Below are positions 34,425 to 54,828 of a DNA stretch of 64,000 nt, piece after piece. The stretch's first letter is position 1. Each line of letters opens with the position of its first letter. This DNA comes from Aquisphaera insulae. Lineage in GTDB: Bacteria > Planctomycetota > Planctomycetia > Isosphaerales > Isosphaeraceae. The position numbers were made by a program, and so were the translations under genes. The DNA lies in the NCBI RefSeq assembly GCF_011064615.1, contig NZ_JAALJH010000008.1, positions 1-64,000 of the forward strand, read 5' to 3'. Below the pieces are notes generated by a model, which did not search any database, was not told the DNA's origin, and was given only the letters and a program-made list of their open reading frames with translations.

Positions 34425-35858
34425 TCAACGCGATGCCATGGCCCGGGGGGGAGCCGGTCCGAAGCGTGCGGCCGGCCCCCACGCCGTCCGCTCCAGCCAG
34501 ATGAGCGTCCCCGAGTTCCCGTGGAGGACATGCACGGGGCCGCCGTCGGCCCGCCAGCCGCGCCCGTCCTCATCGATCTGATACTGCTCGGGGGGCCGGC
34601 CCGCCAGCGCGTAGTTCCAGCCTCGATCGATGATCCTGACGGCCTCCGGATGGTCATGCCGGTACAGGTTCATCGCCGGCTGGTCGGCCCAGAAATCCAT
34701 GCCCCAGAGGGCAGGGGACCGGAGCAGGTCGACGCCGGCGCGGCAATAGGCCATCAAGCTGCCCGGCGTGCCGGCCGCGAAGCCGCTGTTCAGGAAGGTC
34801 TGGGACGACATGATCCGGAAGGTCTCCTCGCGGGCGACCGGGTCGATGACATAGTCCGACCACGTCCGAATCACGGGGTTCTCGGGGTAGCTGAGCGGCT
34901 CCGGGCAGACGAGGAGTCGCTCCGGGTCCTCGGCCACGAGATCCCAGAGCGGGCCGAGCCGCGACTGGAAGAGGACGTCGCCGGCATCCCAGTACCCCAC
35001 GGGCGTGTCCGCGGGCCAGTCCGCGAGCACCTTCGGGAAATCGTCGAGGCGTCGAAGCGCGGGGCAATCCCCGTTCGCCGGGATGGAGACGACCGTCAGC
35101 CCGTCCAGGGCCTCGAGCTGTTCGGTCTCCATGGGGCTCAGCCCGTAGGCAAAGGCCCAGACATGCTCCTCGTTCCCGGACTCCCTGAGCGTGGTCATGA
35201 ACTGCTTGCGAAAACGACGCTGGTCGCGGCGGTCGAAGGCGGCAAGGATGCGGCCGGCGGGACGAGGCCGTCTTGCGCCCACTGGAGTCGACGCCGGCAC
35301 GGTGTGGGCTGTCGCGCAGGCCGGCTGGTTGACGGCTGGATCGGCGAGGGGACGATGCCAGGCCCGCGCGGCGCGATGATAGCCGATGCCGCGTCCAGAG
35401 GTCCGCAGGTCGTGGCAGCAGCAGAGGCACTCGCAACGTCCCGGCTCCCAACGGAACGTGATGCTGTTGAGGGCCTGGCGGCGAAAGAGAATCGCGGCCA
35501 TCCCGACGTGGGTGGGATAGTCCCAGTGTTCCCATTCCCTCGCCATCTCCCCGGCGCTATCGGCCGCCAGGGCCGCGAAGGAGGGTCGCCGGCGGAGCCC
35601 ATCGACGAGGGCGGCGACGCAGTCGGGCTCCAGGACGACGTCGTCGTCCACGAACATGACCAGGGGCGCCGTGCCGATCGTCTTCATCTGATTGCGGGCG
35701 CGAGCGATCGTGGCGTGACGATGCGGGTCATCCGGCAGGCGCGGCCCCGTGCTGCGATGCACATTCAGCCGCACGCCCCGCTGGGATGCGATCCCGCGCC
35801 AGACATCGTCTCGCGGCGGCGAGAGATCCCGGCTGAGCAAGACCAGATCGACGATCAT
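34425..35858 (-). CDS. Two-domain GT-A glycosyltransferase
   Basis: A protein of 477 residues with two nucleotide-sugar domains. The N-terminal part (about residues 1-185) is GT2-like: VDLVLLSRD start, ARARNQMK and MFVDDDVVLEPDCVAALV (DxD motif). It contains an unusual cysteine cluster, RCECLCCCHDL. After a proline-rich linker the second part (about 205-460) has YWDAGDVLFQSRLGPLWDL (D-x-x-D), FLNSGFAAG, DQPAMNLY and VHVLHGNSG, the order seen in GT8/DUF-type galactosyltransferase-like enzymes. No signal peptide or membrane helix, so a cytoplasmic enzyme decorating a glycan; acceptor unknown. Confidence 0.68.
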   Translation of the reverse strand: MIVDLVLLSRDLSPPRDDVWRGIASQRGVRLNVHRSTGPRLPDDPHRHATIARARNQMKTIGTAPLVMFVDDDVVLEPDCVAALVDGLRRRPSFAALAADSAGEMAREWEHWDYPTHVGMAAILFRRQALNSITFRWEPGRCECLCCCHDLRTSGRGIGYHRAARAWHRPLADPAVNQPACATAHTVPASTPVGARRPRPAGRILAAFDRRDQRRFRKQFMTTLRESGNEEHVWAFAYGLSPMETEQLEALDGLTVVSIPANGDCPALRRLDDFPKVLADWPADTPVGYWDAGDVLFQSRLGPLWDLVAEDPERLLVCPEPLSYPENPVIRTWSDYVIDPVAREETFRIMSSQTFLNSGFAAGTPGSLMAYCRAGVDLLRSPALWGMDFWADQPAMNLYRHDHPEAVRIIDRGWNYALAGRPPEQYQIDEDGRGWRADGGPVHVLHGNSGTLIWLERTAWGPAARFGPAPPRAMASR

Positions 35859-35942: not shown

Positions 35943-36524
35943 TCACCTCCCGTGGGGGCATGCCGAGAGGGCCTGCGCCTTCTTGATGCTGGCGCAGCCC
36001 CGGGCCGGCGAATAGCTCCCCTCCGCGCTCGCCGCCGCCGAGATCAGGCTCTCGTGGCGCGTGAGGACCGGTGCGTTCTCCGGCACATAGATGATGCCTC
36101 GCGTCCCCTGCGGGAGCCGGACCTCGTAGGCCACGTCGTCCGCCTTCGGGTCCCACTTGAGCGAGCCGATCAGGTCGCGGATCTCGCCGGGCCTCACGAT
36201 CGTCGCCTCGGAGAGCCAGCACGGTTCGTCGCCGCCCCATCCCGCCTCCGCCGCCTCGTCCTCGTCCACGAAGCGGACCAGCTTGATGTCGGGGATCGAG
36301 ACGAATCGGGTCACGGTGTGCGTTTGGCTGAGATGCTGGACCGACTTGAGGTAATACCTCGGGTGGCGGTCCCTGGCCTTGGGATCGGTCGGGCCCGGAT
36401 ACCGGATCAGGAAGATCTCGCCCGTGGCGGGATATGGACCGGGGAGGGACACCGTGCCGACGAGGTCGAAGGCGAGGGCCTGCCCCTCGCTGAACTCCAG
36501 GGAGGGGACGGGTTTCGAGGCCAT
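35943..36524 (-). CDS. Protein of unknown function
   Basis: A protein of 193 residues from the ATG at 36524; a promoter at 36646-36674 lies inside the longer open frame and supports this start. The sequence is beta-rich (FLIRYPG, RYYLKSVQHL, RFVSIPDIKLVRFVDED) and without signal peptide or membrane helix. No family recognised. The glycosyltransferase gene follows after 84 bases and may be cotranscribed. Confidence 0.6.
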   Translation of the reverse strand: MASKPVPSLEFSEGQALAFDLVGTVSLPGPYPATGEIFLIRYPGPTDPKARDRHPRYYLKSVQHLSQTHTVTRFVSIPDIKLVRFVDEDEAAEAGWGGDEPCWLSEATIVRPGEIRDLIGSLKWDPKADDVAYEVRLPQGTRGIIYVPENAPVLTRHESLISAAASAEGSYSPARGCASIKKAQALSACPHGR

Positions 36525-36849: not shown

Positions 36850-39800
36850 TCACCTCGAGACGGGCTGCGTCGTTTGGGCGGCTCGCGGCCTGGGGAGCGT
36901 GCGGACGACGCGGAAGCCGTAAGTCCCCTCGGAGTAGTTGGCGCTGGCCGCGTATCGGTGCGCGGACCTCGCCTGTCCCGGTGAGTAGCAGAAGGCTCCG
37001 CCGCGGAGGGCCCGCGCCGGACGGTCGCCGAACTCGCCGCCGCCGGGCAGGTCGAGGACGGCCTCTCCGGGACCGAGTGCCAAGGGGTAGGGGGCGGGAT
37101 CGAAGCCGTCGGATACGCCGTCGTGGCACCATTCCCAGACGTTGCCCAGGGTGTCGAAGAAACCCCATGGGTTCGGCAACAGGCGGCCGACCGGCCGGGT
37201 GCGGTCGTCGGAATTCAGCCATGTCCAGCCGTATCGCGGGAAGAGTTCCGCCGAGTTCCCGAAGAATCGGGACGTCGACGTTCCGGCGCGACAGAGGAAC
37301 TCCCACTCCGCCTCGGTGGGCAGACGGTAGCCGGTCCGTTCGACGGCGCCCGAGTCGAGTGCCATCCCCGGGATGATCGCGTCGGGATAGCACGCCTGGT
37401 CCCAGGGAATTGCCGGGTCCTGGGCGCTGAGCCAGTTGCAGAACTGTGCGGCCTGATACCACGACACGCCGTTGATCGGGCAGGAATCCTCGAGGCTGTA
37501 CGCGCCGTCGGGCTTGCTGCCGAGATCGAAGGCGCGGAACTGCTCGATGCTGATCTCGCAGACGGTCGCCTCGAAATCCCGCCCGATCGACCGATAGTGG
37601 GGCGTCTCGAGGTCGCGCCGCCCCGCCTGGCCCAACGGAGATCCCATGAGGAAGGGGAGAGACGGACGGCAGGTTGCGAACGTCAGCCCCAGCGGGCCGA
37701 TCCGCCATCCGGCCCGGGAGTCGACACGCGGCCTGTCGATCAACTCCCGCCGCGCCCGGTCCAGCCGGCCGGCGTCCATCCGCCGCAAGAGCAGCTCGGC
37801 CGCGGAATGCACGCCGGGATCCGGATCGTCGCGGTAGGACGCCGCGGCGGCCTCGAGGACGGTCGACCTCTCCTCCACGGACTTCTCCTTGGCCGCGATC
37901 TCCGCCCAGATCATCAGGACGGCCTGGCGCACGCCCGGGCGCGGATCCGCCGACCGGATGCGGTTCAGCAACCGGCCGCGAGCGAGCGTCATGGTCGACA
38001 GGCGATCGATGATCACCGAACGGACCCTCAGGTCCGCCCCGTAATCCAGGAGGGCGGAGAGCGGGCCCTCGATCTCCAGCAGATCGAGCGCGATCGACGC
38101 GATGGCCTGGCGGCCGACCAGCGGCTCGTCCACGACTCCGGCCAGCTCCGGACTCACGAGCCGGTCGGCCAGCACGGACCGGAAGGTCGGCTCGGAGGAC
38201 CTCTGCCGATCGAGCTTGAGGAGCCGGCCGAGGAGGATCTCGGCCGCGTCCGGCTGGCTCTCGACGAGGATCGCGGCGAGCCGCCTCGGGTCCTCCTGCC
38301 GCTGCAAGATGTCGCCGATCATCTCCGAGGCCGAGGCCCGCTCCACCGGCGTGGCGGACGGATCGCCGCAGGTCGTTCGCAACGGATCGACGAGGTCCAC
38401 TTCCGCGTGCCCGAGGAGGCGCAGCCAGCCTGGCGACTGACGGACGTCATCGAGCAGCGCCTTCGCGACGTCGCCCGAAGCATCCCCCGGGATCGATCGA
38501 TCGGCGGGGAGGAGATATCGCAGCGTACACGCCGCGCGGAGGCGAACGCCGCGCGCGGCCCGCGGGTCCGCGAGGGTTTCCCGGAGCTCGGCGAGCCCCG
38601 CCGAATGGAGGTCGCTCGCCAGGATCCCTCGGATCAGCTCGACTCGATCCGGATCCTCAGCCTTGATGAGGAGCTGGCGGAGATACTCGCCCCGGTCCCG
38701 GTTCGGCCGGAACCGATAGAGCAGCATGCCGGCCACGGGCTCGTCGACCCCGTCCTCCTTGCGGCGGCGCTCCAGCCGCTCGAGCTCGCCGACGACGAGG
38801 TTCTCATAGGGGCCGAGGCTCTCCATGCGGTCGAGGAGCACCTGGTCCTTCGCGAACAGGACCGAGCTCAGGGCGGACCTCGATTCGTAGCTCTTGAGCG
38901 TCTCGAACCAGCCCACGAGGATCGCCGCGATGAGGATCGCCGCGATCGCCAGGCGTGACAGGTGATACCGGCCCGAGGCTTTCATCAGCCGGCGTTCCTC
39001 GGCCGTCCACCGGCTCCGCGGCAGGGAGGTGAGGATGCCGGCGAACTCCAGGAGCGACGGCAATCGATGGACAGCCGGCTCGCGGGTCCAGGATGCGGTC
39101 ACCGCCTGCAGCCGCAAGCGCGCCCGGCCGTCGCGGGTGCCGAGCGCCCTGCGCTCCAGCCACTGACGGACCGGCCGGATGAGGTAGTCGTGGGCGAGCT
39201 GGTAGTGCGTCTCGCTTGCGCGCGGACCGGGGGCGCCCGACCGGCCGGCGGCCGCCTCGCGGCCCGGTCGGGCCTCGACGGAGGTGATCAGACGCAGGTC
39301 GGTCTCCAGCAGCCGGAGCAGCTCCGCGAACTCCTCGGGGCGATCGTCGCAGCGGGCGGCGACCCGCAGCGACTCGATCGACCGGGGGGATTCGCGGATC
39401 GCGGAGGCCGGGGCCGGCAGGAGCTGCCCGAGGATCGCCTCCGCGTCCTCGCGCCGGAATCGAGACGCGGACGCGGACGTGACCGGATCGAAGACCTGCT
39501 CCAGGAACTTGACGCCGATCCCCTCCATGCCGCCGAGCGCCTCCAGCGTCTCCGCGGTCCAGGGCCTGTGCCGGATGACCTCGACGAGGAGGCTCAGGCG
39601 GACCGGGACCACGCGGTGATCCGGCCCCAGCAGGCCGACGGCCGCCGCGTCCAGGAACCGGTCATTCGCATCCTTCGCCGGCGGAGTTCCGACCTCGAGC
39701 TGCCCCAGCGAGCGGCCGAATTCCTCGAGGACCTTGCGGGCATGCCGGGTGTCGAAGAGCTCGACCGCCGCCGCATTGACCCCCTCCATGAGGGGGATCT

Positions 39801-41649
39801 CCACGGCCCGCATCAGCCGCGTGGTCGCCATCCAGTATTCGTCGCGGACCAGGATCAGGGCCTGGAATCGCCTCCCGTCGCAGTGCCGGAGCGCGCGCAC
39901 CAGCGTGTTCGACATCTCCAGCGGTCGGCCCTGCAGCCACTGCTCGAACTGGTCGAGGACCAGGAGGATCTTCTTCCGCAGCCGCAGCTCCGGGTCGTCG
40001 CGGATCATGCCGATGGCGTCGGCCAGGTCCAGGTCGGCCGGCAACTGGGGCGCCAGCAGCCGGATCTCGGCGAGGAGACGATCCTCGAGGCCGTCGGGCG
40101 TGGCGTCGACGACGATCGGCTCGACGAGCCGGCGATCTCGGAGCGGCAGCAGGCCCGCCCGGACGAACGAGGACTTGCCGCCGCCCGACGGGCCGTAGAG
40201 CACGCCCACGCTGAAGGGGCGGGCGGACTCTCCCCCCTCAATCCGGAGCTTCCAGAAGCGGATCGACTCCGGCAGCCCGTCGCTGCCGCGCGGACCCGGC
40301 AGGAGCGAGAGGAAGGACCCCGCATCCTCGCCGGTGAACGACCTCATGCCCCGGGGGATGGCGGGAGGACGTTCGCCGCACTCCTCATCGGGCCGGGCGC
40401 CGGTGAGCCAGCGGCGGAGCTCCGAGGCGAGGTCCGCGGCGGTCAGATAGCGATCGGTCATCGGCCTGGAAAGGCACTTCATGCAGATCCGTTCCAGCTC
40501 CCGCGGGATGAACTCGCCGAACTGCCGCGGCGGCCTCGGCTCGCGGTTGAGGATCTCCCGGAAGCACTCCGAGGTCCGCCGGCCGCGAAACGGGAGGCGG
40601 CCGGTGAGGCCCCGGTAGAGGATGACGCCGAGCGCCCAGATGTCGGTCCGGCCGTCCAGCCGGTTGGTTTCGCCCCGAACCTGCTCCGGCGCCATGTAGG
40701 GGACGGTGCCGGCGACCTCGCCGCGGAGCAGCCGGGCGATCTCCTCGTCGATCGCCAGCCCGAAGTCGCAGACTCGGGGATTGCCCAGGGCATCGAGGAG
40801 GATGTTCGAGGGCTTCAGGTCGCGGTGCGTCAAGCCGGCGTTGTGCGCGTGGTGCACGGCGGCCGCCACGTCGGCGACGAGCCTCGCCAGCCGCCCGGGC
40901 TCGATCCGACCGCGGCTCATCAGGTTCTCGAGCGTCTGCCCGGCCACGTATTCCAGGACGATGAAGCCGTCCACGACCCCGGGATCGTCGCCCGCCTCGC
41001 CGCTCGGGGGGACGAACTCGTGGAGCCGAACGATGCCGGGGTGGTCCAGGGACCGTAGCCGCCTGGCCTCATCGGCGAGCGACATCAGCCGACGCCGGCC
41101 GCGCGGGTCGCCGGGCCTCGCCGTCTTGATCGCGACGTCGCGGCCCCGCTTCTCGTCGTGAGCCAGATAGACCAGGAAGTTGCCGGTGCCGAGCAGCCGT
41201 ATCGGCCTGAAGCGGCCGATCCTCTCGGGCAGATGCTCTCCCCCGCCGGGGCGGTCCCAGAAGACCGATCGGTCCCCGGTCGTCACCACGTCCGTCCGGT
41301 CCAGGACCTCCATCGAGGCGAACCCCGTCGACTGGTCCCGCCCGATCAGCGGGTGGATCGAGGTCCTGGCCATCGGCGAGACCTCGCTCAGGATCGTGCG
41401 GACGATCTGGGCGTGATCGCCGAAGCGGACCTCGTAGTCCTCCGCTTCGGGACACTGGCCGGAGAGCCGACGCAGCTCGATCTCCCGCGCCAGGAGCTCG
41501 CGGAACAGGGCCGTCCGGGCCAGGATGGTCGAACGACTCAGGTAATCCTCGATGCGCGGGCTCTCGCCGGCACGCCAGGCGTCCTCGAACGAGTCGCAGA
41601 CCTCGTCGATCTTCTGGAGGAGCGTCAGGGGGAGCAAATCGGAGGACAT
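36850..41649 (-). CDS. Ser/Thr kinase-STAND NTPase-HEAT-like-FGE fusion
   Basis: A protein of 1,599 residues. Order seen: a short planctomycete kinase leader (1-90); a complete Hanks-type kinase (about 145-415) with LLGTGNF, VAIK (Lys175), HRDLKPSN (Asp277) and DFG (Asp295); a STAND-type P-loop NTPase (nSTAND1 style) with GPSGGGKS (486-493), Walker B-like LLVLDQFEQWL and the late HYQLAHDYLIRPVRQWL; one membrane helix (about 897-913); a long HEAT-like helical stretch; and a C-terminal FGE-sulfatase domain (from about 1330) with LPTEAEWEFLCRAGT, NVWEWCHDG, ALRGGAF and GFRVVR. Kinase residues are intact. The FGE fold in such fusions is usually a binding module and not an oxidase. Likely a membrane sensor that couples ligand binding outside to phosphorylation inside, or a conflict-type switch. 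Confidence 0.9.
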   Translation of the reverse strand: MSSDLLPLTLLQKIDEVCDSFEDAWRAGESPRIEDYLSRSTILARTALFRELLAREIELRRLSGQCPEAEDYEVRFGDHAQIVRTILSEVSPMARTSIHPLIGRDQSTGFASMEVLDRTDVVTTGDRSVFWDRPGGGEHLPERIGRFRPIRLLGTGNFLVYLAHDEKRGRDVAIKTARPGDPRGRRRLMSLADEARRLRSLDHPGIVRLHEFVPPSGEAGDDPGVVDGFIVLEYVAGQTLENLMSRGRIEPGRLARLVADVAAAVHHAHNAGLTHRDLKPSNILLDALGNPRVCDFGLAIDEEIARLLRGEVAGTVPYMAPEQVRGETNRLDGRTDIWALGVILYRGLTGRLPFRGRRTSECFREILNREPRPPRQFGEFIPRELERICMKCLSRPMTDRYLTAADLASELRRWLTGARPDEECGERPPAIPRGMRSFTGEDAGSFLSLLPGPRGSDGLPESIRFWKLRIEGGESARPFSVGVLYGPSGGGKSSFVRAGLLPLRDRRLVEPIVVDATPDGLEDRLLAEIRLLAPQLPADLDLADAIGMIRDDPELRLRKKILLVLDQFEQWLQGRPLEMSNTLVRALRHCDGRRFQALILVRDEYWMATTRLMRAVEIPLMEGVNAAAVELFDTRHARKVLEEFGRSLGQLEVGTPPAKDANDRFLDAAAVGLLGPDHRVVPVRLSLLVEVIRHRPWTAETLEALGGMEGIGVKFLEQVFDPVTSASASRFRREDAEAILGQLLPAPASAIRESPRSIESLRVAARCDDRPEEFAELLRLLETDLRLITSVEARPGREAAAGRSGAPGPRASETHYQLAHDYLIRPVRQWLERRALGTRDGRARLRLQAVTASWTREPAVHRLPSLLEFAGILTSLPRSRWTAEERRLMKASGRYHLSRLAIAAILIAAILVGWFETLKSYESRSALSSVLFAKDQVLLDRMESLGPYENLVVGELERLERRRKEDGVDEPVAGMLLYRFRPNRDRGEYLRQLLIKAEDPDRVELIRGILASDLHSAGLAELRETLADPRAARGVRLRAACTLRYLLPADRSIPGDASGDVAKALLDDVRQSPGWLRLLGHAEVDLVDPLRTTCGDPSATPVERASASEMIGDILQRQEDPRRLAAILVESQPDAAEILLGRLLKLDRQRSSEPTFRSVLADRLVSPELAGVVDEPLVGRQAIASIALDLLEIEGPLSALLDYGADLRVRSVIIDRLSTMTLARGRLLNRIRSADPRPGVRQAVLMIWAEIAAKEKSVEERSTVLEAAAASYRDDPDPGVHSAAELLLRRMDAGRLDRARRELIDRPRVDSRAGWRIGPLGLTFATCRPSLPFLMGSPLGQAGRRDLETPHYRSIGRDFEATVCEISIEQFRAFDLGSKPDGAYSLEDSCPINGVSWYQAAQFCNWLSAQDPAIPWDQACYPDAIIPGMALDSGAVERTGYRLPTEAEWEFLCRAGTSTSRFFGNSAELFPRYGWTWLNSDDRTRPVGRLLPNPWGFFDTLGNVWEWCHDGVSDGFDPAPYPLALGPGEAVLDLPGGGEFGDRPARALRGGAFCYSPGQARSAHRYAASANYSEGTYGFRVVRTLPRPRAAQTTQPVSR

Positions 41650-41722
41650 GGGCCGATCTCCCCGGTGGCGCACTCGCGACTCGCGCAACACATGACAGCC
41701 CCGCGTCAATCGAGCGGCCAGT

Positions 41723-41751
41723 ATTGGACCGTATCGGCGGGCTCGATGCAA
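41723..41751 (-). promoter_or_regulatory. Possible promoter of the kinase-STAND-FGE gene
   Basis: On the minus strand TTGCAT (41751-41746), 17 bases, TCCAAT (41728-41723). Leader about 70 bases. Confidence 0.35.
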
Positions 41752-46263: not shown

Positions 46264-46788
46264 ATGCCGGACGCGCGGGGTGATCTGCTGGGCCGACTCT
46301 TCGATGCCCACGCGGCCGGCCTGGCCATGTATGCCCGTCAGTTCCGAGGTTGCGACGGGGCCGAGGCGGACGACCTGGTTCAGGAAGCGTTCCTGGCCCT
46401 GGCCCGCCAGTCGAGACTCCCCGACGAGCCCGTGGCCTGGCTCCATCGCGTCGTGAGGAACGCGGCCCTGATGGCGGTACGCAGCTCGCGCCGCCGGCAG
46501 GCTCGAGAGGCCCGGACGAGCCGCTCCGAGGCCGAGGCGGAGCCCTGGTTCGCGACGGTCGACGACCAGCTCGATGCGGGTCAGGCCAGCGCTCAGCTCG
46601 CCGCGCTCGATCCGGAGACCCGAGAGGCGATCGTGGCCCGGCTCTGGGGCGGCCTGACATTCGAACAGATCGCCGGCTTGCAGGAATGCTCCACGGCGAC
46701 GGTCCACCGACGATACAACGCCGGGCTCTCCCGGCTCCAGGAAAGGCTGGAAACGCCATGCCATCGGACAGCTTCCACGACCCCATGA
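46264..46788 (+). CDS. ECF-type RNA polymerase sigma factor
   Basis: A 174-residue sigma factor. Region 2 is seen as ADDLVQEAFLALARQ with the following PVAWLHRVVRNAALMAVRSSRRR, and region 4 as LTFEQIAGLQECSTATVHRRYNAGLSRLQERL, a helix-turn-helix for the -35 box. It directs RNA polymerase to a small regulon, usually for envelope or stress responses. The next gene overlaps its end by 31 bases and encodes a single-helix membrane protein likely to act as its regulator. The ribosome binding site is weak. Confidence 0.88.
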   Translation: MPDARGDLLGRLFDAHAAGLAMYARQFRGCDGAEADDLVQEAFLALARQSRLPDEPVAWLHRVVRNAALMAVRSSRRRQAREARTSRSEAEAEPWFATVDDQLDAGQASAQLAALDPETREAIVARLWGGLTFEQIAGLQECSTATVHRRYNAGLSRLQERLETPCHRTASTTP

Positions 46789-48891: not shown

Positions 48892-48974
48892 CGCGCGCCG
48901 TTTCGATTTTCCTGTATCCAGATCGCGGTCCGCCTTCATAGAAGGGACATGAGCGTCCCCAATTGGAGCTGACC

Positions 48975-50978
48975 ATGCAAGCCGCCCGGGATCGTACCCC
49001 TGACCTTGTCCGCCTTTTCGACGCCGGGAGCGTCGGGCTGCTTCCGGATAACGAACTCCTGAACCGGTTCGTCGTCCATCGCGATCGGCTGGCGTTCGAG
49101 TCCCTGGTGTCACGGCTCGGACCGATGGTCCTGGGCGTCTGCCGGAGACAGCTCGGCGAGTCGCCCGAGGTGGATGACTGCTTTCAGGCGACCTTCCTGG
49201 TCCTGATCCGCCGAGGGCCGACGCTCGGGCCGGACGTGCCGCTGGGCGCCTGGCTCCACGGCGTGGCCGTGCGTGTGGCGCGTCAGGCCAGGAAGCAGGC
49301 GGCCCGGCGGGTCGACCGCGAGCGGGCCGGGGTGAGGATGGACGTCGTGGAAGGGCGGGAGCCGGGTGGAGACGATCCGGAGCTCCGGCGGATCCTGGAC
49401 GAGGAGATCGCCCGCCTGCCGGACCGGTATCGCCTCCCCGTGATCCTGTGCTACCTGGAGGGGATCACTCACGCCGAGGCGGCGCGGCGACTGGGCTGGC
49501 CGCTCGGAAGCGTCAAGGGGAGGCTCTCCCGGGCCCGGTCCCTGCTCCAGTCCCGGCTCACGCGCCGGGGCGTCGCGGTGGGGACGACGGCGGGTGCACT
49601 CGCGGCCGGCGGGTACGTCGAGGCATCGATCCCCGCGTTCGTCGTTCAATCGACATGCAACTCGCTCCTCCGATCCGGCTCGGGGGCCGCCTTCGCCCTG
49701 TCACGAGTTCTACCACAATCCGTTTCGAGGCTCGCAGAGGGAGTCCTTCATACCATGGTCGTCTCAAGGCTTGGACAGTTTGTCGCGATGCTCGGAGTCT
49801 CGGGGCTTTTCCTGGCGGGAGCCGGGGTGATGGCCCGCCAGGGTGCCCCATCCACCCCCAGGCAAGAGCCTCCACGCATTCCGATTCGGGCGTCGGCCAC
49901 CGCGAGCTCCGACGTGAAGCAGGTCACGCCGACGAAAGTAGACGTCAAGCCGACCATCGAACCGGCCCCCGGCGTCCGGCCGCCGCTCAATCGGGCCGAG
50001 CGCGAGGCGCTGGATGCCGCTCGCGACGCCTTCCGGGTCGTCAATGAATGGTTCCGGAGCGATCCATTCGATCCATCGGCCGACTCGCCGGAGCGCGTCC
50101 AGGACGCCTCCAAACTCCTGCGGGACGTGGAACTCTCGCTTGCGAGAACCCAGGTCGAGCGGACCGCGGCCCTAGATGCCCACGCGGATCGGTTGCGCGA
50201 CATGGCCCGCGTCGATGGAGAGCGAGGGCATGCGACGAACCTGTCCCGGGCCCGGACGCGAGCCTATTACGCACTCGCCGCGCTCCAGGCTGAGCAGGCG
50301 AGATCGGCGCCGGATCAGGCCGCGGCCGTCACGAAAGCCGATGACCGAAAGTCGGGCCACGAAGCGGACGGGACCAGGATTCCGGGTCGCGAGCTGGACG
50401 TGAAGTCCCGGGAAATCCTCACCAGGCTCGACGCACCCATCCCCATGAATTTCCCCAACGAAACGCCACTCGAGGAGATCATCAAGTATCTGAAACAGAC
50501 CACGCAGGGTCCGAAGGACACGGGTATCCCGATCTACCTCGATCCGGTCGGACTCGAGGAGTCCGAGAAGTCGCTCACGTCTCCCGTCTCCCTCGACCTG
50601 GAGGGCGTGCCCCTGAGATACACGCTCCGTCTCCTGCTGCGTCAGCTCGGCCTGATCTACGAGGTCAAGGACGGAGTCCTGATCATCACCTCGCCCGCCT
50701 ACCAGGACATCGAGACGGATCTATCACGAAAGAAGGAGCGTCTCGAACGCGGCGAGATGACGCTCGACGAGACGAAGCAGCTCGTCGAGGAGTTGAAATT
50801 ACGTCGCGAGGCCCTGCGGTTGTTCGTGACGGGCGATGAGGTGGAAGCGGAGGAGAAGACGGGGCAGGCGCACGCCCGCGAGGTGGCCGAGCTCCGTCGC
50901 CAACTCAGGGAGACCCGTGAGCTCGTCGAGGCGATGCGCAAGGAGAAGGAAGCCGGCAAGAAGACCGGTGGCCCGTGA
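48975..50978 (+). CDS. ECF sigma factor fused to a membrane and STN-like extension
   Basis: A protein of 667 residues. The ATG at 48975 has GGAG seven bases upstream; an upstream TTG is less likely. Residues 35-190 are an ECF sigma factor: region 2 with DDCFQATFLVLIRRG, region 4 with LPDRYRLPVILCYLEGITHAEAARRLGWPLGSVKGRLSRAR. A membrane helix follows (about 266-286, QFVAMLGVSGLFLAGAG), then a variable linker, and at about 470-560 a secretin/TonB short-N-terminal (STN)-like fold (PLEEIIKYLKQTT, SLDLEGVPLRYTLRLLLRQLGLIYEV, GVLIITSP). The C-terminus is a charged coiled coil. Membrane-fused ECF factors with long extensions are known in planctomycetes; the outer part may sense or contact another envelope protein. 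Confidence 0.82.
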   Translation: MQAARDRTPDLVRLFDAGSVGLLPDNELLNRFVVHRDRLAFESLVSRLGPMVLGVCRRQLGESPEVDDCFQATFLVLIRRGPTLGPDVPLGAWLHGVAVRVARQARKQAARRVDRERAGVRMDVVEGREPGGDDPELRRILDEEIARLPDRYRLPVILCYLEGITHAEAARRLGWPLGSVKGRLSRARSLLQSRLTRRGVAVGTTAGALAAGGYVEASIPAFVVQSTCNSLLRSGSGAAFALSRVLPQSVSRLAEGVLHTMVVSRLGQFVAMLGVSGLFLAGAGVMARQGAPSTPRQEPPRIPIRASATASSDVKQVTPTKVDVKPTIEPAPGVRPPLNRAEREALDAARDAFRVVNEWFRSDPFDPSADSPERVQDASKLLRDVELSLARTQVERTAALDAHADRLRDMARVDGERGHATNLSRARTRAYYALAALQAEQARSAPDQAAAVTKADDRKSGHEADGTRIPGRELDVKSREILTRLDAPIPMNFPNETPLEEIIKYLKQTTQGPKDTGIPIYLDPVGLEESEKSLTSPVSLDLEGVPLRYTLRLLLRQLGLIYEVKDGVLIITSPAYQDIETDLSRKKERLERGEMTLDETKQLVEELKLRREALRLFVTGDEVEAEEKTGQAHAREVAELRRQLRETRELVEAMRKEKEAGKKTGGP

Positions 50979-50997
50979 GCGACGTCGGCCAGGCACG

Positions 50998-51939
50998 TCA
51001 GCCGATCGGCTCGACGACGATCTCGTCCGCGAGCCGGTCGACCTCGTCGGGGTTGACGGCGCCGGCATCCCAGACCAGGGCGTTCGACACGGCGCAGGCG
51101 ACGGCTCGCCGGAGCATGGCCTCGGGATCGAGCTGGTTCAGCCAACCGTCCACCAGGCCGGCCAGGAGGGAATCGCCGGAGCCGATCGGGTTGACGACCT
51201 TGATCGACGGCGGGATGACCCGGTAGCGCTTGTCGCGGATCTGGGCGAGGACCGCGCGCGGCCCGTCCGTGACCACCCCGCAGGTTACTCCGTGCCGAGA
51301 CCAGTCGGCCAGGAGGCCGAGGACATCGCCGTCGGAGACCTCGGTCTTGCGGAGGCGGCCGGCCGCCTCCTTGCGGTTGAGCTGGAGCGCCATCGGCCAG
51401 AAGCCCCAGATTGCGTCCAGGGCCGGGCCGTACGTGTCGAGGAAGACCGGGATCCGCCGGGCACGGGCCAGCGAGATCAGATCGCTGAAGAGCCCGTGAG
51501 TGGCCGGCGAGGGGCTCGAGCCGGAGAGCGTGAGGGCCAGGACCTCGCGGCCGGCGAGGGCCTTCTCGATCTCGTCGGCGAACTGTTCCGCCTCCCTCGG
51601 CGTGACGGCCGGATCGGGGTCGAAGAACGCGGTCTGGTTTGGCGTACCCTCGGTCAGGACCGTGAGGATCTCGCGAGTCTCGGACTGGGTCGGGACCGCG
51701 ATCGCGTCGAATCCGTCGTCCCGCCGCAACAGCTCGGCGCAGTGCCTTCCCACGGGGCCGCCGAGGAAGGTCGCCGGACGCGCCGAGCGCCCGAGCCGCT
51801 TGAGGGCGCGGGCGACGTTATTCCCCTTGCCTCCCACGACTTCCCGCACCGATTTTCCCCGGACCAGATCCCCCGGTTGCCATTCGGGGACCACGAGCGT
51901 CTTGTCCAGGCAGGAATTCAACGTGACGCATACGATCAT
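50998..51939 (-). CDS. PfkB family sugar kinase, 1-phosphofructokinase-like
   Basis: A 313-residue ribokinase-family kinase. MIVCVTLNSCLDKTLVV and VVGGKGNNVARALKRLG are typical of the FruK/LacC (1-phosphofructokinase, tagatose-6-phosphate kinase) branch, and VNPIGSGDSLLAGLVDG holds the anion hole and catalytic aspartate. It should phosphorylate a phosphosugar in the cytosol. No phosphotransferase genes flank it, so fructose-1-phosphate or tagatose-6-phosphate as substrate is unproven. Convergent with the sigma fusion gene, 19 bases apart. Confidence 0.85.
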   Translation of the reverse strand: MIVCVTLNSCLDKTLVVPEWQPGDLVRGKSVREVVGGKGNNVARALKRLGRSARPATFLGGPVGRHCAELLRRDDGFDAIAVPTQSETREILTVLTEGTPNQTAFFDPDPAVTPREAEQFADEIEKALAGREVLALTLSGSSPSPATHGLFSDLISLARARRIPVFLDTYGPALDAIWGFWPMALQLNRKEAAGRLRKTEVSDGDVLGLLADWSRHGVTCGVVTDGPRAVLAQIRDKRYRVIPPSIKVVNPIGSGDSLLAGLVDGWLNQLDPEAMLRRAVACAVSNALVWDAGAVNPDEVDRLADEIVVEPIG

Positions 51940-52111
51940 GGCGGGATCAACCATACAGTAGATTGGATGTCGGATCGTCGTGGTGGCCGGCGCACCGTCG
52001 CTCTCGACCGCTCGCAAGTCCCGGGCCCCAGGATAACGCGCGAATCGCCATCAGTTGCGGCGTCTCACCCGTCGTCCGCGCAGGGGCTTCCGGCCGATCC
52101 ATCTAGCATAA

Positions 52112-52140
52112 GGCAAGCCGCCTCGCGAGGCCACCATGCC
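52112..52140 (-). terminator. Weak hairpin after the thioesterase gene
   Basis: Inner GCCT-CGCG-AGGC palindrome (52120-52131) with outer GGCA/TGCC arms, about 50 bases after the stop. No T-tract. Low support. Confidence 0.25.
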
Positions 52141-52188
52141 GTGACCGCGGCTCAATTTCCGCCCCCACGGGCCATGACCCGCGAGGTC

Positions 52189-52641
52189 TCAAAACGGATG
52201 CCCCTCGAGGGCCTCGATCGCGTGCCGGATCTTCGCCGGGATCGCATGGGCCCGGTTCGCCTTGTAGTCGAAGACGACCATGGTCGACGTGCCCTCCGCG
52301 GCGAGCGCGCCGAGCTGCCGGCTGAAGATGCTGTGCTCCAGCTCCATGCTCGATCGCCCCAGGCGGACGATCTTCACGCCGATATGGACCGTGTCCGGAT
52401 AGCTGAGCTGCTTGCGATAGTCGTTCGAGACCCGCGCCAGGATCGGCCCGATCCGCTCATCCCGGTACAGCTCCATCAGCCCGACCTTGTAGAAGTAGGC
52501 CAACCGCGCCGTCTCGTACCAGCGGAAATAGGTCACGTGATTGACGTGCCCCAGCGGATCCTGCTCGCCCCACTGAACCGGCTGCACCGCCACGACCGGG
52601 AATCCGGCGGTCAGCTCGTTCATCCTCGTTTCGGCGTCCAT
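52189..52641 (-). CDS. Acyl-CoA thioesterase, 4HBT hot-dog fold
   Basis: A 150-residue thioesterase. The catalytic segment WGEQDPLGHVNHVTYFRWYE matches the 4-hydroxybenzoyl-CoA thioesterase family (D-x-x-GHVNN-x-x-Y), with the conserved aspartate in DPLG. It hydrolyses acyl-CoA or acyl carrier thioesters. An alternative start at 52623 has no spacing for a ribosome binding site. Divergent from the coiled-coil gene. Confidence 0.82.
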   Translation of the reverse strand: MDAETRMNELTAGFPVVAVQPVQWGEQDPLGHVNHVTYFRWYETARLAYFYKVGLMELYRDERIGPILARVSNDYRKQLSYPDTVHIGVKIVRLGRSSMELEHSIFSRQLGALAAEGTSTMVVFDYKANRAHAIPAKIRHAIEALEGHPF

Positions 52642-52732
52642 CGGCTGATGCTTTCCGTTTCCTACCGGGAACGCTCCCTCGCCTCCGGGTCTCTCGTTTT
52701 CGACGACGATCTGCCCGAAAAGTTCAGAGGTT

Positions 52733-52762
52733 GTTGGCGATGGGAACTGCGCTGGAGTAGAG
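52733..52762 (+). promoter_or_regulatory. Promoter of the coiled-coil gene
   Basis: TTGGCG (52733-52738), 18 bases, TAGAGT (52757-52762). Predicted start near 52769, 38 bases before the ATG. Confidence 0.4.
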
Positions 52763-52806
52763 TCAACGCCGCACTGCAACCATATCTCCTGGCTCGGAGC
52801 CCGTCC

Positions 52807-54828
52807 ATGTCCAAGCTGCTCTGTCGGACCTGGGTCGGTATGTGCAGCGTTATCATGATCGCCGAGCCCTCGGCCCCTTCGCAGGAGCCTCCCCGCTCTA
52901 TCGAGAAACGACTGGATGACGTTCGCCGTGCCTACCTGGACGTGGCCCAGTCGGTCTACGACGGCCTCAACGCCTTCCACGGTCGCGGTCCGGTATTCGA
53001 CGAGCTGACGTGGAAGATCCAGCGCGCGGAGGCAGACTACACGAACGCGAAGCTCGAGAGAGAGTTCAGCGAACTCGAGCTCAGGATATACGACGAATCG
53101 ACGTACCCCCTTGAGCGGGCTGTCGCGGCAGGCAGTGTCAAGCTCGCGACCGCGAACCTGGAGCGAATACGAGGCAGCATCGCGGATCAGAAGAATTACC
53201 TCGAGCGGTCTCGAAAACAAACGACCAACACTCTCACCGAGGATCTGATCCTCCAGGGAGCCGAGGTCATTCTCCGAGAGGAGGAGCGCAGGAGGCCGGT
53301 GGCCGAGGCCGAACTTGCCCGGGAGACCTCCAGGCTCGATCGTCTCGAAAAGGTTCTAGGACCGCGCCGCAGAGCCGAAGTTCTGGCGAAGAAGGACGAG
53401 GCTCTCGGCAAGGAGCTCCAGAAACAGAGCGAATGGATGGCCGCGAAGAACGATCTCCAGGCCAGGATTTCGGTGGCCCGAAGCCTTGCGACCGAGGACG
53501 AGTGGGGTTCCCGGCTCGCGAATCTTGACGGCGTGGCGATTCAGCTCGCGGAAGTGGGGAAGAAGCTCAGGAGTTTCGATGACGCCAAACGGATACCCAC
53601 CGAGCAGGAAGCCCGCGATATTGAGGATCGAATCGAGACGTCGGCGTCGCGGATCCGGAACGTTCGCCGCTCCCTGGAGGTGAGCCGACTGCGACAACTC
53701 ACGGCAATACTCTCGCGATTTTCTTCCGGTCCGATCGCCGCTCAGACCGCGACCTCGCCCCCCTCGCCAATCGTTGGACTTCTCGGCGATGAGGGGGCCG
53801 AGGTCCGCCTCGACGGTGCACGCCAGTCCCTGATCCGGGCTTGCGCTTCTATCCTCGATCGGCTCGAGCAGATCGAGGGTAGGGTATGGGACATCCCGTC
53901 CCAGGAACTGGCGATTCGCGCCGCGGAGGCCTGCTACAAGGCCGCCGCAAACCGACTCGCGCAGGCCAGGGAGGTCCAGAAGGAGTACGTGGAAACGTTC
54001 TTCGTGCGCGAGCGGACCGAGGCGTTGACCGCCGTGGCCATGGCGGAATCGACACTGAAAGGCAGCCAGGAAGATCTCGTCCGCGCCTCCGCGGCGATGG
54101 ATCGTGCAAGACGGACGGCCACGACTTCGCTGCCGGACGCAGACGCCCTCCGGCGATTCGAGATCGCTCTGAAGTTTGCCAGGCACGGAGTACAGAAGTC
54201 GGAATTGGAGCTCGAGCACGCAAGGAACGAGCTGGATGTTCTGGACAATCAGGGGAGACCCGTCCGAGAGAAGGAACTCGCGGCCGACGTCGAGCGAGCG
54301 ATCTCGAGAGAAATCTCGCAGCGTCAAACGCTCACGATCGAACGGGAGAAGCTGGCAATCTCCAAACGTCCACAGACGAGTGCCGGGTTGACGGCAATCG
54401 AGAAGGCGTCGCTCCGCGATCTCCTGGGATCGATCCGGGACGAGGCCGAAATTCGCGGCCGGATCGCGACCACCCAGTCCAATGACAAACCGCGGGACGC
54501 GAATGTCTTTCGGGAAATCGAGTCGGCGATCGCCGCGCTGGAACTCAAAGCCCGTGGAGCCGAGCGAGCGATTACCGAGCCGCAGTTCCTCGAGATGGCG
54601 CGAAAGCTAGCTGAACTCGAAAAGCCCACAAGAACCATTGCCCCCAGGCGCGGAGCTCCGCGACCCGGGCGAGAGCTCTTCGATAAACTTCGGAGCATAT
54701 CTCCCGAGGATCGAGCGACCCTTAAATCGGGGACCGAGGAGAAGAAGCGGGAAATTCTGAAAAAGGCAGGGTTCACTGACGAGGAGCTGGAGGAAATGCG
54801 AGGACTGCGAGAGCAACCGAAACGGTAG
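52807..54828 (+). CDS. Long coiled-coil exported-like protein
   Basis: A protein of 673 residues from the ATG at 52807 (the frame is open far upstream but only this start follows a promoter). The N-terminus (KLLCRTWVGMCSVIMIAEPSA) resembles a weak signal peptide. Most of the rest is charged heptad-rich helix (for example ILREEERRRPVAEAELARETS and similar), with a short proline-rich break near residue 325. The tail ends FTDEELEEMRGLREQ. No family recognised; base composition is slightly less GC-rich than its neighbours. Possibly a periplasmic structural or tether protein. Confidence 0.6.
   Translation: MSKLLCRTWVGMCSVIMIAEPSAPSQEPPRSIEKRLDDVRRAYLDVAQSVYDGLNAFHGRGPVFDELTWKIQRAEADYTNAKLEREFSELELRIYDESTYPLERAVAAGSVKLATANLERIRGSIADQKNYLERSRKQTTNTLTEDLILQGAEVILREEERRRPVAEAELARETSRLDRLEKVLGPRRRAEVLAKKDEALGKELQKQSEWMAAKNDLQARISVARSLATEDEWGSRLANLDGVAIQLAEVGKKLRSFDDAKRIPTEQEARDIEDRIETSASRIRNVRRSLEVSRLRQLTAILSRFSSGPIAAQTATSPPSPIVGLLGDEGAEVRLDGARQSLIRACASILDRLEQIEGRVWDIPSQELAIRAAEACYKAAANRLAQAREVQKEYVETFFVRERTEALTAVAMAESTLKGSQEDLVRASAAMDRARRTATTSLPDADALRRFEIALKFARHGVQKSELELEHARNELDVLDNQGRPVREKELAADVERAISREISQRQTLTIEREKLAISKRPQTSAGLTAIEKASLRDLLGSIRDEAEIRGRIATTQSNDKPRDANVFREIESAIAALELKARGAERAITEPQFLEMARKLAELEKPTRTIAPRRGAPRPGRELFDKLRSISPEDRATLKSGTEEKKREILKKAGFTDEELEEMRGLREQPKR

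What the first reader, a model, noticed from the sequence alone, without database searches (positions are those of the whole stretch)
36850..41649. Kinase, STAND NTPase, HEAT-like repeats and FGE domain in one membrane protein
A complete Hanks kinase is joined to an nSTAND1-like NTPase, a membrane helix, a helical repeat stretch and a C-terminal FGE-sulfatase fold. STAND ATPases act as ligand-triggered switches in signalling and in several anti-phage systems, and FGE/C-type-lectin folds often bind variable ligands. The combination could be an undescribed sensor or defence switch.
Basis: partly seen in the sequence, partly recalled or inferred. Interest (0 to 1): 0.7.

Follow-up and report, generated by a model that had tools for sequence, protein, structure and literature searches.

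The report
Membrane-spanning STAND receptor kinase gene cassette
A planctomycete bacterium carries a large membrane protein that looks like an immune-type receptor wired to a protein kinase, encoded next to two partner genes that travel with it, and it probably senses something outside the cell, but what it senses and whether it fights viruses are unknown.

Summary
Window 36850-41649 (-) encodes one 1,599-residue protein: Hanks kinase, nSTAND1 NTPase, one transmembrane helix, an alpha-solenoid resembling HEAT proteins, and a C-terminal FGE/C-type-lectin domain lacking the formylglycine-synthase cysteine pair. It is one of 60 distinct kinase-STAND-FGE proteins recovered, nearly all planctomycete. 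In its branch it belongs to a three-gene cassette: receptor, small orphan protein with a cysteine-containing tail, and a glycosyltransferase-like protein. Both partners occur in the same 4 of 45 family genomes, 5 of 5 copies beside such a receptor, one set on a plasmid. STAND-FGE fusions with N-terminal kinases were already described as predicted conflict systems (PMC8195603). New here: the membrane-spanning layout, the cassette, and a planctomycete TIR-nSTAND1-solenoid-FGE relative whose homologous sensor half is diversified by an adjacent retroelement (13 of 13 template mismatches at adenines). The window gene has no such element; 8 window proteins scanned gave no defence gene; its FGE variable-region equivalent is not evolving fast between close relatives. 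Best reading: a transmembrane, NLR-like, ligand-triggered receptor kinase. Antiphage function is possible but unshown; glycosylation may be output or target. New variant of a known kind.

The parts
36850..41649 (-). receptor gene: kinase-nSTAND1-TM-alpha-solenoid-FGE, 1599 aa
41227..41649 (-). N-terminal ~140 aa region, similar to that of some other kinases in the fetched loci, no Pfam match at E up to 1
40444..41202 (-). Hanks-type Ser/Thr kinase domain (effector)
   Evidence: Pfam PF00069 2.4e-41, motifs complete
39079..40206 (-). nSTAND1 NTPase domain (Walker A/B)
   Evidence: Pfam PF20703 1.8e-13; model; Foldseek ORC and archaeal ATPase (2qen) hits
38896..38952 (-). single transmembrane helix just after STAND
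   Evidence: hydropathy
37735..38814 (-). alpha-solenoid, HEAT-like
   Evidence: AlphaFold2, Foldseek
36898..37707 (-). FGE / C-type-lectin-fold domain, catalytic Cys pair not kept
36910..37005 (-). segment equivalent to the DGR variable region of relatives (RGG...GFR)
35943..36524 (-). orphan 193-aa cassette protein with Cys-containing tail (start at 36524 chosen by me from the alignment; the longest frame starts further upstream)
34425..35858 (-). glycosyltransferase-like cassette protein: weak GT2 match in the N half of the window copy (21 bits, cut-off 23.3); some homologs also match GT8 weakly in the C half; CECxCCC cluster invariant in 7 aligned members

Best explanation
A membrane-spanning, NLR-like receptor kinase. 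The solenoid plus FGE half lies outside the cytoplasmic membrane and binds a ligand through the FGE pocket (inferred). Binding is passed through the single helix to the nSTAND1 NTPase, which exchanges nucleotide and clusters receptors, so that the attached Hanks kinases activate one another and phosphorylate targets (inferred from STAND and Hanks-kinase biology, recalled). In this branch the receptor works with two co-inherited partners, a small Cys-tailed protein and a glycosyltransferase-like protein, which are likely its output or the target pathway (linkage shown, role inferred). Shown by computation: domain order, intact kinase and P-loop motifs, hydrophobic helix, predicted solenoid, loss of the FGE cysteine pair, cassette linkage, homology of the sensor half to a DGR-diversified TIR-STAND sensor. 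Not shown: ligand, topology by experiment, oligomerisation, kinase activity, phage defence.
For: Domains and motifs; model and fold search. Closest fold and sequence is the DGR variable protein 2y3c. FGE second catalytic Cys falls in a gap; the first (P0001 1588) is Cys in 2 of 60. Across 61 proteins kinase and P-loop motifs are mostly kept by pattern (DFG 60, Walker A 58, Walker B 58, HRD 57, VAIK-type 56). Hydrophobic helix right after STAND in 48 of 61; in 31 of these 48 more K/R precede than follow it. FGE dN exceeds kinase dN in 12 of 12 pairs; for the Aquisphaera orthologs kinase 0.08, STAND 0.17, middle 0.40, FGE 0.29. Effector swap on the same chassis: TIR-nSTAND1-solenoid-FGE in L089, DUF4062-nSTAND1-FGE in L088. 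In L089 13 of 13 template/variable mismatches fall on template adenines. Of the mapped columns of that segment, those diversified in L089 are the more variable in the DGR-less family (3.49 bits over 10 columns vs 2.61 over 12, p 0.005; against L110 3.44 over 11 vs 2.76 over 14, p 0.012). Cassette.
Against: Between close relatives the segment equivalent to the DGR variable region is not the fast part: of 10 pairs in which it was found, its identity was higher than that of the whole FGE domain in 8, equal in 1, lower in 1. No dN above dS anywhere it could be computed. In 13 of 61 proteins no helix reached the hydropathy threshold, and in 17 of the 48 with one K/R were not in excess before it, so outside placement is not uniform. 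DGR-diversified columns may simply be tolerant surface sites, and the two column tests share columns. L089 itself has no membrane helix (best 19-mer 1.06), so its sensor is probably cytoplasmic. No defence gene among 8 window proteins scanned. A few homologs lack a recognisable kinase or P-loop motif. Nothing on ligand or activity.
Confidence: 0.6

Rival explanations
1. Non-immune envelope receptor: the protein is an environmental or self/non-self receptor kinase controlling surface glycosylation through its cassette partners, not a counter-invader system.
For: Glycosyltransferase-like partner beside the receptor in 5 of 5 family copies and in G362; other receptor branches also neighbour GT2 or group-1 glycosyltransferases, together 16 of 60 loci with a similar neighbour, one of them marginal; another group neighbours a GMC oxidoreductase-like gene in 8 loci, 7 of them with a GH13-like gene too; no defence genes among 8 window proteins; no sign of fast FGE diversification.
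Against: The 16 of 60 count used queries drawn from the same loci and has no matched control; only 2 of 8 cassette glycosyltransferase-like proteins pass the Pfam GT2 cut-off. Patchy, partly plasmid-borne distribution (4 of 45 family genomes) and the TIR-for-kinase swap with a DGR fit conflict systems better.
Confidence: 0.32
2. Glycopeptide cassette: the small protein is a RiPP-like precursor whose Cys-containing tail is glycosylated by the glycosyltransferase-like protein, and the receptor regulates it.
For: Tail Cys 21 of 221 residues versus body 4 of 1191 in 8 members (tail boundary set by me at the TAAxxA motif); the glycosyltransferase-like gene was next to it wherever both were sought; a papain-like peptidase gene nearby in 3 of 8 loci, over the Pfam cut-off in 2 of these 3.
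Against: No RiPP model matched over cut-off in the 4 members scanned (best thioviridamide family on L155, 12.5 bits against 40); tails are not alike; Cys could bind metal.
Confidence: 0.12
3. The FGE domain is an active formylglycine- or EgtB-type enzyme acting on sulfatases.
For: FGE domain over Pfam cut-off.
Against: The second Cys of the active FGE pair falls in a gap and the first is Cys in only 2 of 60.
Confidence: 0.03
4. The FGE end of this very gene is diversified by a DGR in trans.
For: Relatives L089 and L110 are DGR targets.
Against: In the held genome the last 451 bases match only themselves and three places at 71-89% identity that do not reach the variable-region segment. Four RT genes, none on the window contig. 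The genome is in 309 contigs, so a gap cannot be excluded.
Confidence: 0.02

Closest known systems
STAND NTPase-FGS conflict systems (PMC8195603, eLife 2021)
   Same: nSTAND1 plus FGE with an N-terminal effector slot that can be an S/T/Y kinase; predicted ligand-sensing by FGE (section 7 read)
   Different: Membrane helix between switch and sensor, alpha-solenoid before FGE, planctomycete expansion, cassette with orphan and glycosyltransferase-like protein, no DGR; none of the first four is mentioned in the section read
DGR-diversified STAND-FGE antigen sensors of multicellular bacteria (PMC10907252, PNAS 2024)
   Same: nSTAND1/NACHT plus C-terminal FGE; one NACHT-CLec target predicted periplasmic (passages read)
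   Different: Window gene has no RT or template
TIR-nSTAND1-solenoid-FGE-DGR protein of a Planctomycetaceae MAG (L089)
   Same: Sensor half 31.5% identical over 600 columns
   Different: TIR instead of kinase; no membrane helix by hydropathy; adjacent DGR
Kinase-CLec proteins of cyanobacteria (PMC7517822) and chlamydial kinase with C-terminal DUF323 (PMC1262709)
   Same: Hanks-type kinase fused to a CLec/FGE-type domain (passages read)
   Different: No STAND NTPase or solenoid between them in the passages seen
WP_148599171.1, Aquisphaera giovannonii plasmid pOJF2_1
   Same: Full-length homolog, 41% over 96%, same cassette order
   Different: Annotated only as bifunctional kinase/FGE family protein

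Membership tests
STAND NTPase-FGS systems (PMC8195603) | STAND-type NTPase with intact P-loop | tested here: met
   nSTAND1 51 bits over cut-off 27.1; Walker A and B present
STAND NTPase-FGS systems (PMC8195603) | C-terminal FGS/FGE domain | tested here: met
STAND NTPase-FGS systems (PMC8195603) | N-terminal effector or EAD | tested here: met
   Hanks kinase with complete motifs
STAND NTPase-FGS systems (PMC8195603) | Often linked DGR (not stated as obligatory) | tested here: not met
   No RT on contig, no template copy in the held genome
Antiviral STAND (Avs) defence | Effector-STAND-sensor tripartite layout | tested here: met
Antiviral STAND (Avs) defence | Protection against phage | not testable with these tools
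Antiviral STAND (Avs) defence | Match to a defence model beyond the kinase, or defence neighbours | tested here: not met
   The 25 of 34 PADLOC hits shown all have their best stretch starting in the kinase region; of 8 window proteins scanned 7 had no hit and Mfd had helicase-region cross-hits
DGR variable proteins | C-type lectin fold | tested here: met
   2y3c rank 1
DGR variable proteins | Template repeat with A-specific mismatches | tested here: not met
Formylglycine-generating enzymes | Active-site cysteine pair (pair recalled from the literature; aligned here to 6muj and 2q17) | tested here: not met

The most novel reading that the evidence does not exclude
Planctomycetes run a family of transmembrane NLR-like receptor kinases that sense extracellular non-self through an FGE/C-type-lectin pocket and answer by changing glycosylation: receptor branches travel with their own glycan-acting partners (orphan Cys-tail protein plus glycosyltransferase-like protein; Cys-domain GT2 or group-1 enzymes; GMC oxidoreductase plus GH13), so the response to an invader would be remodelling of the surface or a glycosylated effector instead of cell death.
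Probability: 0.18. Interest if true: 0.8.

Novelty: new variant of a known kind. Interest (0 to 1): 0.55.

Why it matters
It links three ideas in one bacterial protein: NLR-type switches, receptor kinases that cross a membrane, and the C-type-lectin fold used for diversified recognition. The same sensor half sits under a TIR effector with a retroelement that mutates it and under a kinase without one, a natural pair for testing how STAND sensors move between intracellular immunity and envelope sensing. The linked cassette gives a concrete place to look for the output.

Tried and rejected
DGR at this gene: rejected. Enzymatic FGE: rejected. Fast diversification of the variable-region equivalent between close relatives: not seen. 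Positive selection: no dN above dS where computable. Defence-island context: none among 8 window proteins; a C-5 cytosine methylase upstream of the L075 receptor and diverse other genes around the cassette elsewhere (10 flanking proteins scanned) did not form a pattern. Housekeeping linkage to mfd: mfd lies beside the gene in the window and 5.6 kb upstream in the same-genus ortholog, and in no other fetched locus, flanks being limited. Orphan protein: no Pfam hit at E 0.001 for the window copy, no NCBIfam hit over cut-off in 4 members, no PDB sequence match at E up to 10, model pLDDT 65 and no PDB fold at E up to 0.001. Tree: quick method, many open forks and some long branches. VIA-align was not available. 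Alignment A4 was not used further.

Full report
OBSERVATION. The frame 36850-41751 (-) with ATG at 41649 encodes 1,599 residues. GC by codon position marks it as coding (0.72/0.50/0.90). Pfam finds Pkinase, nSTAND1 and FGE-sulfatase over their cut-offs. Kinase and P-loop motifs are intact. A helix at P0001 934-952 is the only one over the hydropathy threshold. AlphaFold2 of residues 480-1633 on a 30-row alignment (mean pLDDT 83, pTM 0.59) shows the NTPase, a long helix, about 20 further helices and the FGE fold. Foldseek ranks 2y3c (Treponema variable protein 1) first, then PvdO; ORC subunits and the archaeal ATPase 2qen also match, as do CAND1, importin-beta and SF3b. Which part of the model each matches was not printed; that the ATPases match the NTPase and the HEAT proteins the solenoid is inferred.

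WHERE IT COMES FROM. The genome is 10.0 Mb in 309 contigs. G002, same genus, carries a full-length copy at contig 2 positions 96845-101530, the same place as the gene on Aquisphaera giovannonii plasmid pOJF2_1; so the window genome is inferred to be an Aquisphaera species.

A LARGE FAMILY. From 139 loci, 60 distinct proteins (the window's included) have kinase, STAND and FGE in that order; 61 with the G362 copy. They include 41 named genome-contig loci: one is a Verrucomicrobiales MAG, one an uncultured bacterium, the rest planctomycete by title. Of 417 pattern matches in the named collection 392 encoded a relative and the best 80 were kept. All 59 relative genomes match at E 0.001, but many listed matches cover only the kinase and its N-terminal region, and the list was cut. 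The stretch between STAND and FGE varies from 199 to 1016 residues. One Schlesneria MAG has three copies in tandem, the third cut off in the fetched piece (L044).

SENSOR, NOT ENZYME. Against bacterial FGE structures the first cysteine aligns and the second falls in a gap. Across 60 FGE domains the first position is Cys in 2. Framework residues are nearly fixed (Gly1612 in 59 and Arg1614 in 60 of 60) while many columns between RGG and GFR reach 3-3.8 bits of entropy.

LINK TO DIVERSIFIED SENSORS. Searching the fetched loci with the genome's own four RTs (E up to 1e-5) found RT homology near FGE genes in L089, L110, L100, L097 and L098, and a distant one in L131. No other receptor-bearing locus had a hit, so at this sensitivity and within the fetched flanks no kinase-STAND-FGE gene has an adjacent RT. 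L089 encodes TIR (77 bits), nSTAND1 (367 bits) and FGE (140 bits); its last 570 residues align to P0001 1071-1618 at 31.5% over 600 columns, E 1e-58. It has no hydrophobic helix. Directly downstream lie an RT and a template repeat; over 116 template bases 13 of 13 mismatches are at template adenines, with one 3-base length difference (about 6e-9 if mismatches fell at random on template bases). L110, kinase-FGE with no STAND match, shows 12 of 13. Mapping these onto the family alignment, where some L089 residues had no column (10 of 14 diversified L089 positions and 11 of 12 of L110 could be placed), diversified columns average 3.49 bits against 2.61 for other columns of the segment (p 0.005), and with L110 3.44 against 2.76 (p 0.012). 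The tests share columns and are not independent; tolerant surface sites would give the same picture. Against it: between close relatives this segment is more conserved than the FGE domain as a whole in 8 of the 10 pairs where it was found. The window gene has no template copy in its held genome and no RT on its contig.

SWAPPABLE FRONT END. L088 carries DUF4062-nSTAND1-FGE; L089 TIR; two paralogs in the own genome join kinase to solenoid-FGE without a STAND match by BLAST (L125, L126), for L125 also by Pfam. This is the effector-switch-sensor modularity of STAND systems.

MEMBRANE LAYOUT. A hydrophobic 19-mer at or above 1.6 follows STAND in 48 of 61; of these, 31 have more K/R before than after (means 3.9 and 2.6). 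This favours kinase and STAND inside and sensor outside but is not uniform.

EVOLUTION. In 12 of 12 pairs FGE dN exceeds kinase dN; the middle exceeds the kinase in 11, with one tie. No dN exceeds dS where dS was computable. In L045/L070 and L130/L131 FGE dS is also raised against the rest, which suggests exchange of the FGE end (inference).

THE CASSETTE. tblastn of window neighbours showed that the orphan protein (35943-36524) and the glycosyltransferase-like protein (34425-35858) follow the receptor in the same order in L120, L039, L041 and L042, while mfd is seen only in the same genus. L075 and L079 also have both, about 1.8-2.5 kb downstream. With profiles, the orphan protein is found in 4 of 45 family genomes, 5 copies; the glycosyltransferase-like protein in the same 4 of 45, 5 copies; all 5 sets adjoin a receptor (coordinates). 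In an even sample of 392 phylum genomes each is found only in the own genome and G362 (only up to 9 and up to 4 candidates per genome were scored, so misses are possible), and in G362 they again adjoin a receptor, in the order peptidase, orphan, glycosyltransferase-like, receptor. In all, 8 loci with the cassette were found. On the receptor tree the cassette needs 3 changes, at least 2 forced by well-supported branches, against a shuffled mean of 7.7: the partners go with receptors that are not all sisters, by gain or by loss. Of the 8 glycosyltransferase-like proteins, 7 match GT2 at E up to 0.1 but only 2 (L075, L155) pass the cut-off; 3 (L075, L079, L155) match GT8 in their second half, none over its cut-off. 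The record of A. giovannonii names its copy glycosyltransferase family 2. Seven aligned members share an invariant C-E-C-x-C-C-C cluster; the G362 copy reads CECLCRC. The orphan has a 129-167 residue body and a 10-56 residue tail with 21 of the 25 cysteines, 8 of them in G362.

OTHER BRANCHES. Nine loci were grouped by linked glycosyltransferase-like proteins (whose list was cut; L132); Pfam found GT2 or group-1 glycosyltransferase domains in five proteins of five loci and nothing in three others. Thirteen such proteins were aligned and share a Cys-rich N-terminus, the Verrucomicrobial one only in part. In total 16 of 60 loci have a neighbour similar to one of eight chosen glycosyltransferase or cassette proteins within 4.5 kb, one (L056) marginal; 38 of the 60 had that much flank on both sides. 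The queries came from the same loci and there was no matched control; for scale, G002 has 54 GT2 matches in 10.5 Mb. Eight loci were grouped by a GMC oxidoreductase-like neighbour and seven of these by a GH13-like one; one representative of each was confirmed by Pfam.

LITERATURE. PMC8195603 (eLife 2021; passages, and section 7 read whole) describes STAND-FGS fusions whose N-terminus may be an S/T/Y kinase, names nSTAND1, and predicts invader sensing. PMC10907252 (PNAS 2024; passages) describes DGR-diversified nSTAND1-FGE targets. PMC7517822 (passages) describes kinase-CLec proteins of cyanobacteria. PMC7159879 (passages) mentions FGS domains linked to DGRs in cyanobacterial ternary systems. 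PMC11032199 (passages) predicts kinase inside and WD40/TPR outside in a planctomycete. I found no report of the receptor-orphan-glycosyltransferase cassette in the searches, which cover only an open-licence library.

VERDICT. A real, widespread, modular receptor family; a new variant of a known kind. Defence is plausible by layout and by homology of the sensor, not shown. The cassette is the most useful new lead.

Noticed in passing
L089:3064-8810: TIR-nSTAND1-solenoid-FGE gene with adjacent RT and template repeat; 13 of 13 mismatches at template adenines
   Followed up: partly
L110:251-4770; L100:3-5280; L097:4174-8090; L098:10302-15087: Other FGE genes with RT homology and A-biased template/variable candidates
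   Followed up: partly
L050, L061, L081, L121, L129, L131, L132 beside the receptor gene: Glycosyltransferase-like proteins of different catalytic type sharing a Cys-rich N-terminal domain, an adaptor-like pattern
   Followed up: partly
L045, L046, L048, L049, L052, L070, L083, L138: Another receptor group neighbours a GMC oxidoreductase-like gene, all but L049 also a GH13-like gene
   Followed up: no
L155:11464-12045: Orphan cassette protein ends in a Cys/Gly-rich tail with 8 Cys, unlike the short tails of the others
   Followed up: no
L044:7893-20443: Three receptor genes in tandem (the third cut by the end of the fetched piece) in a Schlesneria MAG
   Followed up: no
window 46264-46788 and 48963-50978: Two frames with sigma-70 region 2 and 4 domains (ECF-type), the second with a long extra C-terminal region
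   Followed up: no
window 50836-54828: 1330-aa frame with no Pfam match
   Followed up: no
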